Positions 22,462 to 58,767 of a stretch of 58,767 bases of DNA are shown here, piece by piece (within the stretch, counting starts at the first letter, position 1; every line of letters begins with the position of its first letter). Source of the stretch: an uncultured Elusimicrobiales bacterium (GTDB taxonomy: Bacteria; Elusimicrobiota; Elusimicrobia; Elusimicrobiales; Elusimicrobiaceae). Under the pieces are notes generated by a model. The model made no database searches and was not told the DNA's origin. It was given only the letters and a program-made list of their open reading frames with translations. The stretch is taken from assembly GCA_944326765.1 (NCBI GenBank), contig CALVFE010000004.1:1-58767 (forward strand). The letters run 5' to 3'. Both the position numbers and the translations under genes were made by a program.

Positions 22462-23433
22462 ATGAAAAAATTTTATATTCTGTTTATTTGTATTTTTATG
22501 ACTTCTCCGGCTTTTGCCCAAGAAGAAGAAATTATGATTATTCATCCCGGCCGGGAAACTTTCATTCATTTCCCTTCGGCTGTACTGGGAAACCAATATA
22601 CACTGACGGTTTTCCTTCCCGAAAAAGCAATTCCTCTTTCCAAACGCTATCCGGTGGTTTATCTGTTAGGCGCCGGACCGCAACAGGCGCAGGAAGCACA
22701 GCGGTTTTTGGAAAAAAATAAGGTGTTGGTAGTGGGAATCAATTTTAAAGAATCCGATTACCAAAATAGAACCAAAATAGTGGAATTTATTTCGCGGGAA
22801 TTAGTTCCCTATATTGATACCAATTATCTTACGTTTACTGATCCTTCCCAGCGCATAATTGCCGCCCGCGGAAAAGGCGCCGCGATAACGGCGATAGAAC
22901 TCCTTTCTAAACCCAATTTATTCGGGGGTATGGCGTTGGCTTCCAGTGCAGATGCGTTGGCGTCGTTTCAGTTGCCGGCCGCCGGACGGGTGCGCGTGTT
23001 TGTAACGGGGCGACAGGCTGAGTTGGCTTTTGCCCAAGAAAAATTGGAACAGGCCGGATTAACGTACGGGCCGGATTTTGCTTTGGCTTATGCGGCTTCT
23101 TCGGCGGATATTTTTGACGGACTGGATTGGGAATATCTGTCTGCTCCGGCGGAGAAAGTAACGCTTCGCCGGCTGAAAGCGACGATAGACAGCCGTCGGC
23201 TGCTTTTAGACAAGGCAGATACGGCAACCCTTTGGATTAAAGCCTATTTGACGAACGGACGTTCTTTTGATTATATACCTGTTTCCTTGCGCATAAGCCC
23301 GCCTTATTTGGACTGGAATGCCAAGCAAGGGGAGATTCGTCCGCTGGCAGGGGCCGAGCCGGGAACGGTTCAAATTCGGGGTGGTGTGGATAAAATAGGC
23401 TTTCGCGTAAAAATAAAGCTTAAAAAACAATAA
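22462..23433 (+). CDS. Secreted esterase-like protein lacking the nucleophile
   Basis: A 323-residue protein with a signal peptide (cleavage after about Ala19, SPAFAQ). Residues about 40-220 resemble the esterase D/putative esterase alpha/beta-hydrolase family: LTVFLPEKAIPLSKRYPVVYLLGA, then VVGINFKESDYQNRTKIVEFISRELVPYIDTNY. The nucleophile elbow, normally Gly-x-Ser-x-Gly-Gly, reads AARGKGAA, with Gly137 in place of Ser, so it is probably a non-catalytic binding protein. The C-terminal 90 residues form a separate beta-rich domain ending in a basic KIKLKKQ. No Shine-Dalgarno sequence is present. The candidate replication origin follows directly. Confidence 0.65.
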   Translation: MKKFYILFICIFMTSPAFAQEEEIMIIHPGRETFIHFPSAVLGNQYTLTVFLPEKAIPLSKRYPVVYLLGAGPQQAQEAQRFLEKNKVLVVGINFKESDYQNRTKIVEFISRELVPYIDTNYLTFTDPSQRIIAARGKGAAITAIELLSKPNLFGGMALASSADALASFQLPAAGRVRVFVTGRQAELAFAQEKLEQAGLTYGPDFALAYAASSADIFDGLDWEYLSAPAEKVTLRRLKATIDSRRLLLDKADTATLWIKAYLTNGRSFDYIPVSLRISPPYLDWNAKQGEIRPLAGAEPGTVQIRGGVDKIGFRVKIKLKKQ

Positions 23434-23439
23434 AAATGC

Positions 23440-23722
23440 TTTCAAAACGCTTTTTTATGCAAAAAAAACGAAACTTGTCAACAGTTTTTTTAAAAATCTA
23501 AAAAAAATGACAAAAATGCCAATCTTTTCTATTTCCGTCGGGAAAAAGAAGAAAAAATAATTTATCCCCCTATACAATGGAAAAGTTATCCACAGAAAAA
23601 TGGGGTTATCCACAAGCTTGGCAAACAGGGTATCAAAAATTGGCTCAAAAAAAGACTTTTTGTAGAAAGATGTAGAGTATAAGGGAAATTATCCACAGGT
23701 TATCCACAGTGTGTGGATAACA
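23440..23722. other. Candidate chromosomal replication origin (oriC)
   Basis: Five perfect DnaA boxes (TTATCCACA) lie within 135 bp: 23586-23594, 23606-23614, 23689-23697 and 23700-23708 on the plus strand, and 23712-23720 inverted. A degenerate box (TTATCCCCC) is at 23562-23570. Left of them, 23434-23520 is an A-rich tract with repeated AAAAAA runs suited to be the unwinding element. Boxes 1 and 2 are 20 bp apart and boxes 3 and 4 are 11 bp apart, close to whole helical turns. No dnaA, dnaN or other replication gene adjoins it, so it could instead be a DnaA-titrating site. GC-skew inversion would decide. Confidence 0.7.
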
Positions 23723-23787: not shown

Positions 23788-24318
23788 ATGAAATTACAAA
23801 CCGTTTTATTGTTTGTTTGTTCGGCCGCCTTGTTTGCTTGTTCTTCCGCCCAGAAACAGGAGGAAGATATTCCGCGTCCACCCAAAAGAGATCCCATTAT
23901 TGAAGAACAGGCAAAAAAGAATGAAAAACTGTATAATCAGAGCGAAGCCCGCATGGCTAAAACGCTTAAACTGCCGGCCATTACTTACGAGTTTGATTCT
24001 ATCCGTCCGCCGGACTACGCTTATCCTTTTCTGGATAAAGTAGCCAATGTGATGATATCTCATCCGTCTTTGCATTTGATTGTGGAAGGCCATACGGACG
24101 TGTTAGGATCGAAAGAATATAATTACTGGTTGGGTGCTTCGCGTGCGGCCGCGATGAAAGCTTATTTGGTGAGCCGCGGGGTAAATGCCGAACGGATCCG
24201 CATTCATTCCCACGGAAAAGACCGCCCGCTGACGTTGGATAATTCCAGCGACGGACGCCGTACCAACCGACGGGTAGAATTTTTATTTACGACACGTACA
24301 TGGAATGCAATTTATTAA
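23788..24318 (+). CDS. OmpA/Pal-like peptidoglycan-associated lipoprotein
   Basis: A 176-residue outer-membrane lipoprotein: lipobox LFAC (Cys18), a charged, Pro-rich spacer of about 40 residues, and an OmpA-C domain (about 65-172). The domain contains YEFDS, the wall-binding block EGHTDVLGSKEYNYWLGASRA and the final RRTNRRVEFLF. The domain order resembles Pal, but no tol genes are near. ACAGGAGG precedes the ATG by 8 nt and a bidirectional terminator follows. Confidence 0.88.
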   Translation: MKLQTVLLFVCSAALFACSSAQKQEEDIPRPPKRDPIIEEQAKKNEKLYNQSEARMAKTLKLPAITYEFDSIRPPDYAYPFLDKVANVMISHPSLHLIVEGHTDVLGSKEYNYWLGASRAAAMKAYLVSRGVNAERIRIHSHGKDRPLTLDNSSDGRRTNRRVEFLFTTRTWNAIY

Positions 24319-53605: not shown

Positions 53606-54235
53606 ATGAGAAAAACTATTGGAGCGATACTCTTTTTATTTTTATTTTGTCCACTTTGGAGCCAGCAGCCGGTAACACAGGTAACTGTTTCCCGGCCGAC
53701 GACGAATGTGAGCGTATATCGGCCTGCTACCTCGGTAACCGTTTCCCGGCCAACGACACAAGTGTCTGTCTTCCGTCCTACTACTCAAACGGAGGTGTCG
53801 CGCCCCACTACCCAAACGGAGGTATCGCGCCCTACTACTTCAGTAGCCGCTTCCCGGCCGGTTACTGTTTTGTCCAGCGGGGCAGCACAGCAAAGCAATT
53901 CCGCGTCCGAATCTAAAAAAACCGCTACTCCTTCTTCACAAGCGCAAACTTCTATGAGCGATTACAAACCCCTTCAAGCTAAAAATTTTCAAGCGCCTTC
54001 CGCTTCGGCTTCGTTAGGCGGGGGAGCTGCCGGGCTGGGAAATAAAATAAACCAGGCTGAAAAAGATGCGTCAGCGGCTTCTAGCCAGGCGCCTAAAGCA
54101 GCTTCGCCAAGCGGGGTTTCCGCCGCTGATGTGGTGGCGGCTCCGTCTGACCAAAAAGTGGGAGGAAATACCTTACTCAATCTGCTGAAACAAAAAGCGG
54201 CGGGGAAATCTGCCTCTAAAAGAGATACTAAGTAG
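53606..54235 (+). CDS. Secreted protein with 9-residue RPTT repeats
   Basis: A 209-residue protein; start at 53606 (AAGGAG 6-8 nt upstream) opening a signal peptide that ends near LWSQ. Seven tandem nonapeptides follow (about residues 25-87), pattern [Q/N/S]-[V/T]-x-V/A-[S/Y/F]-R-P-[T/A/V]-T. The rest is disordered Ser/Ala/Lys-rich with ASLGGGAAGLGNKI, and it ends in a basic KSASKRDTK tail. The regular Arg-Pro-Thr-Thr spacing would suit an extended, perhaps O-glycosylated or wall-binding stalk. No family recognised. Confidence 0.6.
   Translation: MRKTIGAILFLFLFCPLWSQQPVTQVTVSRPTTNVSVYRPATSVTVSRPTTQVSVFRPTTQTEVSRPTTQTEVSRPTTSVAASRPVTVLSSGAAQQSNSASESKKTATPSSQAQTSMSDYKPLQAKNFQAPSASASLGGGAAGLGNKINQAEKDASAASSQAPKAASPSGVSAADVVAAPSDQKVGGNTLLNLLKQKAAGKSASKRDTK
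53678..53866 (+). repeat. Seven 27-bp tandem coding repeats
   Basis: Codes for the seven nonapeptides. Units five and six are nearly identical at DNA level, suggesting recent duplication and a risk of length variation. Confidence 0.8.
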
Positions 54236-54259
54236 TTCTAAGTGTGTATATGAATCACC

Positions 54260-54300
54260 CCCCGGCGGAAAACTCGTCCGTCGGGGTTTGTTTGTTTTAC
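54260..54300 (+). terminator. Terminator of the RPTT-repeat gene
   Basis: CCCCGGCGG/CCGTCGGGG 9-bp stem (one G-T pair) followed by TTTGTTTGTTTT. Confidence 0.85.
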
Positions 54301-54427
54301 CAGGAGCGGTACAATCCCTTTATGAATTTGTATTTTTTTATGAATAATAAAATGAATTTTACAAAAGCATTGCTTTTCCCTTATATCCAGGTAAAAGTAA
54401 TATACCGAAGCGGATCATCTTTTGGCG

Positions 54428-54610
54428 TCAGATGTGAGTAAGCCATTGGCTCGATAAGCCGGATTTCTTAGCCGACAGCAAAATCTCTCTTACCTCAAAC
54501 GACGGATAACGAGCCAAGATAGCCTTCTTTTAATTGTTCGGCATGAAAGGGCTCCTGCCCACCAGAATCCAACGGATACCTAGTCAAGATATTCTCCTCT
54601 TACTAATTAA
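54428..54610 (-). pseudogene. Decayed minus-strand repeat with coding traces
   Basis: Two imperfect direct copies about 70 nt apart (54502-54521 and 54572-54591, plus-strand form ACGGATA-x-C-x-AG-CAAGATA). On the minus strand both read Ile-Leu-Thr/Ala-Arg-Tyr-Pro. In one frame the second copy continues as ARYPSFEVREILLSAKKSG to a stop at 54428-54430, and in another frame the first continues as RYPLDSGGQEPFHAEQ. The frame changes and stops suggest relics of a repeat element or broken gene; identity not known. Confidence 0.35.
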
Positions 54611-55382
54611 AAATGGTTTCATAATCAAATATCCCGGCGGGGTTTTAGAATTTCTATGCAAACATGGGTTAAAAGCCGAGCTGATTGTTTTTATTTGTCA
54701 GTAATTCAGCGAGAAAAAAAGGGGGGAAGAAAGATTCTTTTTCTTGTTTCTCATGTGTTGTTTCCTTTTGCAGAAGCTGATAGAAATGAACTGGAAAAGC
54801 ATTTGTTTTTATTCTTTTCTTTCCTCTTTTTCTTCTATTAAATAACCAAATGTAATACCAGTCTTTTTCTTTTTAAGGGGGGAAAAAGGGATTTCTCCCC
54901 CTTTTTTGTAGCCACATACAGAAAGAATATATTTTTTTATGGAGATTTCCCCCTTTTTTGGGTTGTTGCTTGTGTTTCGGCGGTAAAACACAACGTTTGT
55001 AGTAACCGAAAACGGGAAAAACAACAAGAAATTTCTTATCGGAATGCTCGAACTGCTTGATGTGTTGAATGCTGTTTCATAATTACGAACAGCGCACTAG
55101 CCAAGGGTTATATTGACGCCGGAATGGGGCTGCGGAAAAAAGTTATGAGTCCCACTTTGTGGAAATAGACTCTGGGGATTATTTTATATGGGAGAAATAC
55201 ATATATGGATATGTTTTAAGCCGTTATGTTCTCCCGCGTGGTGTGGTGTTATGAAAGAAAATCGTGTGGGGGAGGCCTAAACAGCCTTCCTGTATCCTCT
55301 TTATTTTGTTTTGCCCCATATCCCAGGTACCCCCAAATCGTTTTATCGCATTTTAGCGCGATTTTGATTATGTTTTTATTTT

Positions 55383-55954
55383 TACTTAAAAAATAAAGAT
55401 ATTTTATTTTTAACATATTTTTTATATTTTATAGGATTTTTATAATCCAACCATAGATTATATTGTAAAAATTAGTATTTAATTTGCATTTTATAGTCAA
55501 TAAAAAAATTGTGTTTTTGGTACAAAAACAACATGAACAAAGAGCTGATTCGTACAAAAAAACGTACAATTTTAAAATAAAATTTAGATTCTGTTATCGA
55601 TGAAAATAAAAAACTATAATATATATGAATTTATATATAAAAAATACTTAAAAAATAAGTATAATAATATAAAAAATAATAATAATTATAGATGTTTATT
55701 TTTTCGATTTTTATTGGTTTTAATTAACATAATAAAAATTATCGTTAGTTATTGGGGCAGGACAAAAAACCCCCTTTCCTACAAAAATAATTCTAATAAA
55801 TGTCAATTCTTAGTCTAGGATTTTATAGGTAATAAAGACAAGTTAAAAACGCTGGATTTTTGTATTTTTAATGGCCAAAATCAGCGTGTTTTTGGGGGAA
55901 TTGTAATAAAATTTCAAAAAAATATATAAAAATAAAAATACTTAAAAAATAAGT
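55383..55954. repeat. Three dispersed TACTTAAAAAATAA copies
   Basis: Copies start at 55383, 55645 and 55939. The last two are extended to ATACTTAAAAAATAAGT and form small hairpins (ATACTTA/TAAGTAT). In such AT-rich DNA some chance matching is expected. Confidence 0.4.
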
Positions 55955-56536
55955 GTATTTTTTTATCTGTTTTATTGGAAATCTTACTAATTTTTACACG
56001 AAAATATCAGCATGAATAGATCATTTTTTTGATAAATCTTGATTAACACCAAATCTAAGTTGCCTTTTTTGTTCGTTTTCCCCCATTGTCCGTAGATGTT
56101 TTTCAAGGATAGGCAATATGCAAGGAATGTATAATTCCGGATAAACACCTTTTCTATCTTCTTACAAAGACTGCATCAAGATTTATGCTTTGTTCGATTG
56201 GGGGCTGACTAGCTCTATTTCATCTTATTTCTTCTGGAGAAGTGTCTGGGGGAAGGCAGGCGCGGAATAAATCTTTTATTGGTTTCTTCCCCCGTCCTAG
56301 AGGAGCGTCTGGACTGCTTTCTGTTTCTCCCCCACTTTGTCCGACGGTATCCGGTAAAAGGAAAGCGTACGGGCGATGTTGAATGGTGCCGTGTCGTAGA
56401 AAGCGGAAAACTTTCTAAGAAAATTAAGTTGGGCGCAGCGTTCAAAGCTCGTCGGATAGATTGTGGTATTCTGCGGGATAAGTAGTATGGATATTTTTTA
56501 CCCTAATTTGGTAATAGAGATAAAGCTGATATAAGA

Positions 56537-57187
56537 TTACAAACTTTCCTTTTCCAATTTTTCAGCTAATACAAAAGCTTTGGCAAATCCTTCATTGGTT
56601 AGCCGATAATTTCTCCCCCTTTTGGTTCCTTCGCAGGTTAGGTGTCCGTTACGTATGTCAGGGGCTAATAAGCGGTCTAATCTGCCTTCGTTGAAGCCGG
56701 ATTTGCGCATAGACCGGGATAGATTTAAAGCCAGGCAGGCGGGCTTTTTGAGTAAAACCCGGGTACCGGCTAATAGAAGCAAAGCCGCTTCTTGGGCGGT
56801 AAGCCGCATTTTTTTACGGAGAAGTACAATATCTCCATCTTCTTTTAAAAGTCGTTCCCATAAGCGAAGCGCTGGGAAATTTTCGTTTTGTCTGGGGGCT
56901 GTACGCTCCACTCGTTGCGCAGGAGGCAAGATTGACAAAGAGGCCATTTCGGCAAGTGAGTCCTCACCCGTGGGTTGCGAAGTGTTTCCCGCCATTTCGG
57001 AATGGGCAGATGAAAAACGGGCGCGTTGTAGGGCGGGTTCGGTTGAAAAAGCCGTAGGAGAATGGTTTTTCCCGACCAACGTTAAAAAATAATTACGCTG
57101 TTGTTCGATAAATTCGCAATTTCCGGTTGCTTCAAACTCTTCTCCGTTTGGGAAACGAAAACGTATTTTAAATAATTCATCTGCCAT
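56537..57187 (-). CDS. Unrecognised protein, possible DNA-binding C-terminal domain
   Basis: A 216-residue cytosolic protein. The N-terminal 35 residues (FKIRFRFPNGEEFEATGNCEFIEQQR) look like a small beta-alpha module. Residues about 36-95 are a polar linker. The C-terminal 110 residues are helical, with LTAQEAALLLLAG, a MRKSGFNEGRLDRLL segment and GHLTCEGTKRGRNYRLTNEGFAKAF, the last resembling the wing of a winged helix. This suggests a DNA-binding regulator, but no family is recognised. GGGGG lies 6 nt before the ATG. Its promoter overlaps TATATGTCA repeats, which may be its own operator. Confidence 0.6.
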   Translation of the reverse strand: MADELFKIRFRFPNGEEFEATGNCEFIEQQRNYFLTLVGKNHSPTAFSTEPALQRARFSSAHSEMAGNTSQPTGEDSLAEMASLSILPPAQRVERTAPRQNENFPALRLWERLLKEDGDIVLLRKKMRLTAQEAALLLLAGTRVLLKKPACLALNLSRSMRKSGFNEGRLDRLLAPDIRNGHLTCEGTKRGRNYRLTNEGFAKAFVLAEKLEKESL

Positions 57188-57236
57188 AATGAACCCCCGC
57201 TTTAAAAGTTATCCACTGCAGTTTTCCTCAGGATAA

Positions 57237-57300
57237 GACATATAATAACTTTTTTGATGGTATATGTCAATATATGATTATTTTATGTCATTATATGTCA
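57237..57300. promoter_or_regulatory. TATATGTCA repeat operator and minus-strand promoter
   Basis: Direct copies TATATGTCA (57261-57269 and 57292-57300), TTATGTCA (57283-57290) and a weak one (57271-57279), plus an inverted copy GACATATA (57237-57244), are spaced near 10 bp. On the minus strand TTGACA (57270-57265), 17 nt and TATTAT (57247-57242) drive the unrecognised gene, so the -35 box lies inside a repeat. A one-mismatch DnaA box (TTATCCACT) is at about 57209-57217. Confidence 0.65.
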
Positions 57301-57307
57301 AATTCTG

Positions 57308-57336
57308 TTGACAAAGCCATTTCTCCGACGTAAAAT
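57308..57336 (+). promoter_or_regulatory. Strong plus-strand promoter of a candidate RNA
   Basis: TTGACA (57308-57313), a 17-nt spacer and TAAAAT (57331-57336), 7 nt beyond the last TATATGTCA copy. Predicted start near 57343; mutY lies 400 nt downstream. Confidence 0.65.
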
Positions 57337-57342
57337 AGACCA

Positions 57343-57613
57343 AAAAATTGACTGCGCATGTTAGAAAAAAGGCTTTCTCCGTAGCAAAAAAATCTAATAT
57401 ATGGCTTCGAATGAGATTTTGTGCTTTTAATCCGCCAAAAGAACGATTGCGGTTTTAAGTTCGATTTGCAAAAAAGAGTCCTTCTTTTGCGGAGCATCCT
57501 TGGGGCTTTTGGGAATCGCGCGCTGCAAAATAAGAGGAATTTTTGCAAAAACATCATTTTCCGGGAATGCAAAATCGACGTCGATTTTGCATTTGTTCGT
57601 TTTTTTTGTTTTT
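57343..57613 (+). ncRNA. Candidate structured RNA, about 270 nt
   Basis: The stretch runs from a consensus promoter to a strong terminator and has no convincing open frame. Three hairpins share the arms GCAAAA/TTTTGC: 57468-57490, 57525-57546 and the terminal 26-nt palindrome 57567-57592, which is followed by a T-rich tail. It does not resemble tmRNA, RNase P RNA, SRP RNA or a tRNA by eye. It could be a regulatory RNA or a decayed leader of mutY. Confidence 0.45.
57567..57613 (+). terminator. 26-nt palindromic terminator
   Basis: ATGCAAAATCGAC and its exact complement form a 13-bp stem with almost no loop (57567-57592), then TTTGTTCGTTTTTTTTG. In RNA the stem would open to 11 bp with a 4-nt loop. 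Confidence 0.75.
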
Positions 57614-57756
57614 AACCTTTAAAACCAGGTTAAACAGCCGGGATATTTTCCCCCCAATTCTTCCAACTCTTGCACAATGGCTGGAACATTGCTTTGTTGT
57701 TTTTCCTTTTAACAGGGTAGGATAGATCCTCTTAAATTGCTAAAATGAGTTATCTT

Positions 57757-58767
57757 ATGAAAAATTTTTCTGCGATTCTCTTAAAATGGTATTACCAAAA
57801 TAAGCGGAACTTACCGTGGCGGCATACGCGGAATCCCTATTTAATATGGTTGTCTGAGATTATATTGCAGCAAACCCGCGTGGCGCAGGGGCTTTCGTAT
57901 TATTTGCGTTTTTCCAAAAGGTTTCCTTCCCCCGATTCCTTAGCGGCGGCTTCTGAAGATGAGGTGCTTAAATACTGGCAGGGACTGGGGTATTATTCCC
58001 GGGCACGAAATTTGCATACCGCTGCAAAAAGTATGAAAGGGGTTTTCCCTGCCACCTATGAGGGCGTGCGGGCCTTAAAAGGGGTAGGAGATTATACGGC
58101 AGCCGCTATTTGTTCTATTGCCTATCAAATGCCTTATGCCGTGGTAGATGGAAACGTCTATCGCGTATTGGCGCGGGTTTTTGGAATTGAAACCCCGATA
58201 GATTCTCAAGAAGGAAAGAAGCTGTTTGCCCAGCGGGCGCAGAAGTTGTTAGATAAAAAAAATCCCGGGGATTACAATCAGGCGATCATGGATTTTGGAG
58301 CTATGGTTTGTACGCCGGCCAATGCACAATGTGGGCATTGTCCGCTGGCGGGGCAGTGCAAAGCTTTTGCTTCGGGACGGGTGGAATTTTTGCCCGTAAA
58401 AGCCCAAACAACAAAAATATCTTCCCGCTATTTCCATTATATATATGTAAAGCAAGGAAAAAATACATGGCTTCACAAGCGCGGCCCGGGCGATGTGTGG
58501 CAGAATCTATATGAGCCGCCCTTGGTAGAAAGTGATTCTGCTTCTGATAACTGGACTGTGAAGGCGGAATATCGCAAGTGGTTTGGCCGTAAGAAATCTT
58601 CCCTGAAAGTTGCCGGGGTCAAACACGTTTTATCACATCGGGTAATTTATGCCGATTTGTCGGGAATAGAGCTTCCCCCCTCTTTTCCCGTACCGGCGGA
58701 ATTTGTGGCAGTGCCAAGAAACGAAGTAAAAAATTATGCCATCTCCCGTTTGGTTCAAAAATTATTG
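57757..58767 (+). CDS. mutY: Adenine DNA glycosylase, C-terminus cut by window end
   Basis: 337 residues are visible with no stop before the right edge. MutY removes adenine opposite 8-oxoguanine. The HhH-GPD core is complete: LPWRHTRNPYLIWLSEIILQQTRV (catalytic Glu in SEI), LKGVGDYTAAAI helix-hairpin-helix, and VVDGNVYRVLARVFG with the catalytic Asp. The [4Fe-4S] cluster motif is Cys-x6-Cys-x2-Cys-x5-Cys (CTPANAQCGHCPLAGQC). The NUDIX-like C-terminal domain begins near residue 225 (WQNLYEPPLVES). No Shine-Dalgarno sequence precedes the ATG; TGC-TAAAAT lies ten bases before 57757. An in-frame ATG at 57745 is an alternative start. Confidence 0.95.
   Translation, partial: MKNFSAILLKWYYQNKRNLPWRHTRNPYLIWLSEIILQQTRVAQGLSYYLRFSKRFPSPDSLAAASEDEVLKYWQGLGYYSRARNLHTAAKSMKGVFPATYEGVRALKGVGDYTAAAICSIAYQMPYAVVDGNVYRVLARVFGIETPIDSQEGKKLFAQRAQKLLDKKNPGDYNQAIMDFGAMVCTPANAQCGHCPLAGQCKAFASGRVEFLPVKAQTTKISSRYFHYIYVKQGKNTWLHKRGPGDVWQNLYEPPLVESDSASDNWTVKAEYRKWFGRKKSSLKVAGVKHVLSHRVIYADLSGIELPPSFPVPAEFVAVPRNEVKNYAISRLVQKLL

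What the first reader, a model, noticed from the sequence alone, without database searches (positions are those of the whole stretch)
57188..57613. Divergent promoters, TATATGTCA repeats and an unknown structured RNA
The 560-nt gap between an unrecognised protein gene (56537-57187) and mutY holds a minus-strand consensus promoter whose -35 box is inside a repeat array. A plus-strand consensus promoter (TTGACA-N17-TAAAAT) follows directly. About 270 nt without an open frame end in a 26-nt palindrome plus T run. Three hairpins in this stretch share the arms GCAAAA/TTTTGC. This looks like a protein plus RNA unit with a shared operator, a possible undescribed regulatory pair.
Basis: partly seen in the sequence, partly recalled or inferred. 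Interest (0 to 1): 0.7.

Follow-up and report, generated by a model that had tools for sequence, protein, structure and literature searches.

The report
Self-controlled DNA-binding protein with DnaA boxes
The gap is not an RNA gene but the control region of an unstudied DNA-binding protein found across the bacterial phylum Elusimicrobiota, whose strong promoter is covered by repeats that the protein itself probably binds and flanked by sites for the replication initiator DnaA, suggesting a link between this gene and chromosome replication.

Summary
The sequence features are real. The minus-strand promoter and the TATATGTCA repeats are functional by conservation: in 47 genomes of the genus the promoter TTGACA-N17-TATTAT (or a near match) is kept at 17-nt spacing. 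A repeat-covered promoter precedes the protein's gene in distant families, including a genome that by its length is Elusimicrobium minutum. The 216-residue protein is a phylum-wide orphan family (148 of 295 genomes). It has a predicted winged-helix DNA-binding domain. The tandem repeat occurs essentially only at this locus. DnaA-box-like sites flank the promoter.

The RNA half is not supported. The plus-strand promoter is unique to this genome (relatives score about 6 of 12 at the site). The RNA folds no better than shuffles. The tested hairpin shows no covariation. The T run is not conserved. The GCAAAA/TTTTGC dyads are conserved DNA elements of the locus.

It is not the chromosomal origin: GC skew does not switch here. 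Best reading: an autoregulated regulator with probable DnaA input; targets unknown. An iteron-replicon-like origin or remnant is the novel reading.

The parts
56537..57187 (-). Orphan protein gene (called YP216 here): N-terminal beta-beta-alpha segment (residues 5-38), about 60 disordered residues, C-terminal winged helix (105-216)
   Evidence: ORF; orthologues; alignments A1/A2; AlphaFold2 model; fold matches; no family
57209..57230 (+). Two DnaA-box-like sites in tandem (57209-57217 TTATCCACT, 57222-57230 degenerate TTTTCCTCA), 13 bp apart, in the leader of the protein's transcript
   Evidence: TTWTCCMC in 43 of 47 genus regions against 0.9 in shuffles; TTATCCAC 17 against 0.31
57242..57270 (-). 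Promoter of the protein gene: -35 TTGACA (57270-57265), 17 nt, -10 TATTAT (57247-57242)
   Evidence: kept at 17-nt spacing in all 47 genus members (41 at 11/12, 6 at 10/12); similar promoters in most of 21 distant ones
57237..57299 (.). Operator/iteron array, units GACATA/TATGTC at 57237 (over the -10), 57263 (over the -35), 57284 and 57294; units 10-11 bp apart or multiples in relatives
   Evidence: GACATA 99 copies in 21 genus regions against 3.1 in shuffles, 72 in 21 distant regions against 2.6; tandem form essentially unique to this locus
57307..57315 (-). Distal DnaA-box-like site (TGTTGACAA; relatives TGTTTATAA, TGTGGAAAA, TGTTGATAA)
   Evidence: Alignment
57321..57330 (.). Conserved TTCTCCGACG element (CGTCGGAGAA on the protein's strand), unknown binder
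   Evidence: Alignment; also in other genera of the family
57387..57420 (.). Distal operator: AAAATCT..(GACATATA)..AGATTTT; looks like a hairpin but does not covary
57468..57593 (.). Three dyads GCAAAA(N10-11)TTTTGC at 57468-57490, 57525-57546, 57569-57590; the last is the core of the 28-nt palindrome 57566-57593
   Evidence: dyads in 37 of 47 genus members, also in L180, where the gene is not next to mutY

Best explanation
The region is a DNA control module, not an RNA gene. It drives a winged-helix DNA-binding protein from a near-consensus promoter. The protein probably binds the TGACATA repeats (10-11 bp apart) that cover its own -35 and -10 boxes, plus a distal repeat about 150 bp upstream, and so represses itself, possibly by looping. 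DnaA, binding to the box-like sites on both sides of the promoter (in this genus two lie in the transcript's leader), probably adds a second, replication-linked input. Shown: conservation of promoter, repeats and boxes, near-uniqueness of the repeat to this locus, a predicted wHTH fold, and absence of support for the RNA. Inferred: that the protein binds these repeats, that binding represses, that DnaA binds in vivo. What the protein controls besides itself is unknown.
For: TTGACA-N17-TATTAT or a near match in 47 of 47 genus genomes, similar promoters in most of 21 distant regions. GACATA units 99 against 3.1 expected in the genus and 72 against 2.6 beyond it. The tandem repeat has 13 of its 16 matches in 20 genomes at this locus. 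C-terminal domain predicted mostly at pLDDT above 90, best matches small wHTH proteins such as Sso10a, RosR, PadR-like, AspA and F93. DnaA-box-like sites far above shuffles, some perfect TTATCCACA in families f2 and f7. The module stays with the gene where mutY is elsewhere: G059 has them on different contigs and G071 has no mutY hit.
Against: No binding, expression or footprint data. Foldseek E-values against the PDB are weak (best 6e-3), so wHTH is a fold-level call. DnaA-box-like sites are degenerate in many members (strict TTWTNCACA in 11 of 21 genus and 6 of 21 other regions). Another regulator could bind the repeats. A control region of about 400 bp is long for a simple autorepressor in such compact genomes.
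Confidence: 0.68

Rival explanations
1. Chromosomal iteron-type replicon or secondary origin, active or remnant: a winged-helix initiator autoregulates, binds iterons and with DnaA opens the AT-rich stretch.
For: Same layout as iteron plasmid origins: DnaA boxes, short direct repeats, AT-rich DNA, adjacent winged-helix gene (review PMC4980987).
Against: GC skew runs through the locus without a switch in four relatives and in two single-contig genomes, where the skew change lies near dnaA. One winged helix only, repeat unit about 10 bp instead of 17-22 bp, no plasmid or phage homologue of the window protein.
Confidence: 0.12
2. One reading: a structured small RNA transcribed rightward from about 57340 to 57615, paired with the protein.
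For: The perfect 28-nt palindrome with T-rich tail folds well (z -3.5) and a consensus promoter match exists.
Against: Promoter private to this genome; whole stretch z -0.9; tested hairpin without covariation; T run in 9 of 49 dyads; no Rfam match over threshold; spacer length and content vary.
Confidence: 0.07
3. Centromere-like (partition) locus bound cooperatively by the winged-helix protein, like parC with ParR or the AspA site.
For: Best target-normalised PDB match listed is AspA, the pNOB8 centromere-binding protein (TM 0.74); phased repeats at the own promoter and hardly anywhere else.
Against: AspA-like folds are shared by many repressors; no partner NTPase was seen next to the gene (by eye); the locus is far from the origin.
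Confidence: 0.06

Closest known systems
Iteron plasmid replicons (RK2 oriV/TrfA, F oriS/RepE, P1 oriR/RepA)
   Same: DnaA boxes, direct repeats, AT-rich DNA, adjacent winged-helix gene
   Different: Single winged helix, about 10-bp units, chromosomal, no skew switch, spread through a whole phylum
PadR/AspA/F93/Sso10a-type small winged-helix DNA-binding proteins
   Same: Predicted fold of the C-terminal domain
   Different: No detectable sequence similarity; extra N-terminal segment and long disordered linker
DnaA-box-bearing autoregulated promoters (for example the dnaA promoter of E. coli; from general knowledge)
   Same: DnaA sites next to a sigma-70 promoter
   Different: The gene is not dnaA; a second, lineage-specific repeat array covers the promoter

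Membership tests
Iteron plasmid replicon | DnaA boxes next to repeated initiator sites | tested here: met
   (consensus matches against shuffles); layout
Iteron plasmid replicon | Iteron units of 17-22 bp (PMC4980987) | tested here: not met
   Units 10-11 bp apart, 6-9 bp conserved
Iteron plasmid replicon | Rep protein with two winged-helix domains (RepE type) | tested here: not met
   One winged helix in the model, no Rep family match
Iteron plasmid replicon | Supports replication initiation | not testable with these tools
   Indirect only: no GC-skew switch at the locus
Chromosomal origin (oriC) | GC-skew sign change at the site | tested here: not met
Autoregulated wHTH repressor | Winged-helix DNA-binding domain | tested here: met
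   AlphaFold2 and Foldseek, (prediction, weak E-values)
Autoregulated wHTH repressor | Repeats or dyads overlapping the own promoter, conserved with the gene | tested here: met
Autoregulated wHTH repressor | The protein binds these sites and represses | not testable with these tools
   Needs gel shift and reporter assay
Structured small RNA | Conserved promoter, helices and terminator | tested here: not met
   the helix test was done for the 57387-57420 element only

The most novel reading that the evidence does not exclude
A domesticated iteron-type replicon, or replication-timing control locus, fixed in chromosomes of Elusimicrobiota: a lineage-specific winged-helix initiator-like protein, its iterons and DnaA boxes act with DnaA on replication, for example as a conditional second origin or as a switch that reports passage of the fork.
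Probability: 0.15. Interest if true: 0.85.

Novelty: new variant of a known kind. Interest (0 to 1): 0.52.

Why it matters
It gives a first lead on an uncharacterised protein family present in half of the sampled genomes of a phylum, and on a control region that joins lineage-specific repeats to probable DnaA sites. If DnaA does act here, it opens the study of replication-coupled gene control in Elusimicrobiota, for which my few literature searches found no dedicated paper. It also shows how a lone consensus promoter and hairpins in one genome can suggest an RNA that comparison does not support.

Tried and rejected
Rfam search: nothing at threshold; one sub-threshold sraL hit on the other strand (E 0.008, 23.9 bits against a gathering score of 39) overlaps the palindrome and looks like chance. 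oriC: rejected by skew. Terminus or dif site: the locus lies about 85-145 kb past the skew change in G071 and about 0.4-0.6 Mb from it in G293, so there is no fixed distance. Regulon of the repeat: a 15-mer and a tandem-repeat pattern find essentially only this locus. One search used the same search with an 11-bp period only and was too narrow. Mobile origin: no plasmid or phage homologue of the window protein, no convincing PHROG or PADLOC match. Apparent loss of the gene in some relatives was uninformative: G001, G007, G009 and G013 lack a close mutY too, and in G021 the contig ends about 110 bp upstream of mutY. The leader's possible hairpin and the dyads' pairing were not put through a covariation test.

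Full report
What was claimed.

Where it is. Named relatives of the protein lie on contigs of uncultured Elusimicrobiales. The genome is 1.49 Mb in 75 contigs.

The observation. All the sequence features exist. Two facts separate signal from chance. The minus-strand promoter TTGACA-N17-TATTAT is present at the same spacing in 47 of 47 genomes of the genus, 41 at 11 of 12 matches and 6 at 10 of 12. The plus-strand match is private: at the aligned site the others score 3 to 9, median 6.

The protein. A profile search finds it in 148 of 295 genomes of the phylum, in 36 of 90 genera. It matches no Pfam family above cut-off, and no NCBIfam, PHROG, PADLOC or PDB sequence convincingly. The AlphaFold2 model has a confident C-terminal winged helix, a small N-terminal beta-beta-alpha segment and a disordered linker. 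Foldseek finds small wHTH DNA-binding proteins with weak E-values; AspA of pNOB8 has the best target-normalised score of those listed, 0.74.

The control module. Read on the protein's strand, relatives show in order: variable A/T-rich DNA with GCAAAA/TTTTGC dyads; a distal GACATATA or variant between ATCT and AGAT arms; CGTCNGA; a DnaA-box-like TTNTNNACA; GACATA units 10-11 bp apart; the promoter, with units over both -35 and -10; then two DnaA-box-like sites 13 bp apart in the leader; then the gene. In G071 the units, the promoter, an upstream box-like site and CGTC are recognisable. In families f2 and f7 some members have perfect TTATCCACA boxes upstream of the units. Counts against shuffles: GACATA 99 against 3.1 and 72 against 2.6; strict DnaA boxes 13 against 1.4 and 11 against 1.2; TTWTCCMC in 43 of 47 genus regions against 0.9 and in 8 of 21 distant ones against 0.6. 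A few distant members, such as L142 and L143, have no clear promoter match by this scan.

Uniqueness. A 15-bp unit with up to 2 mismatches gives the locus plus a few scattered matches at about control level. The tandem form gives 16 matches in 20 genomes, of which 13 are at this locus; of the two extra ones in G040, one lies in a listed reading frame and the other was read only as sequence. The protein therefore has no visible regulon by this pattern.

Not an RNA. The 271-nt stretch folds at z -0.9. The 57387-57420 hairpin pairs 73.8% of cells against 74.5% in shuffles, with no more double changes than shuffled. Only the palindrome itself folds strongly (z -3.5), and a T run follows dyads on the mutY strand in 9 of 49 cases. 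The gap to mutY is 398 to 1122 nt. In L008 and L010 part of it reads like a pilin-type gene (my reading; not scanned). Where gene and mutY are apart (G059), units and a dyad stay with the protein gene (L180).

Not the origin. Skew keeps its sign through the locus in four relatives. In G071 it is positive from 1 to 758 kb and mostly negative from 820 kb on, with dnaA at 0.9 kb and the gene at 904.5 kb. In G293 dnaA is at 3.60 Mb and the gene at 2.51 Mb; skew is weaker there.

Mechanism. A strong promoter with repeated units over both boxes is the usual form of autorepression; the distal unit would allow looping. DnaA sites in the leader would let DnaA lower transcription. These steps are inferences from anatomy. 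The resemblance to iteron replicons is real in layout (PMC4980987) but fails on unit length and Rep architecture.

Limits. Genomes of one genus are related, so counts are not independent. The shuffles moved single bases, those kept dinucleotides. DnaA boxes were called by consensus only.

Noticed in passing
window 23586-23720: Cluster of five DnaA boxes (TTATCCACA in both orientations) in 135 bp, with a sixth at 23386, between an esterase-like gene (22462-23433) and an OmpA/Pal-like gene (23788-24318). Similar clusters stand next to the same Pal-like gene in G024, G012, G003 and in G071 at 338.7 kb, with no skew switch in the window: a candidate datA/DARS-like site.
   Followed up: partly
L168 (G071:C1:162924), also G000:C41:7446: Every genome examined has a second DnaA-domain protein; in the window's genus the open frames run about 900-1190 aa. 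In G071 a long, apparently disordered N-terminal part precedes the DnaA AAA+ domain, followed by a different C-terminal part.
   Followed up: partly
window 54240-56536: About 2.3 kb downstream of the protein gene with low G+C (0.34 in 54001-56000) and no ORF over 76 aa; could be decayed or untranslated DNA.
   Followed up: no
window 57741-57757: mutY probably starts at 57757 with almost no leader: relatives share GTAAAAT just before the ATG.
   Followed up: partly
G015:C8:46340: A further GCAAAA/TTTTGC dyad lies about 600 bp downstream of the protein gene in G015, so the gene is flanked by dyads there.
   Followed up: no
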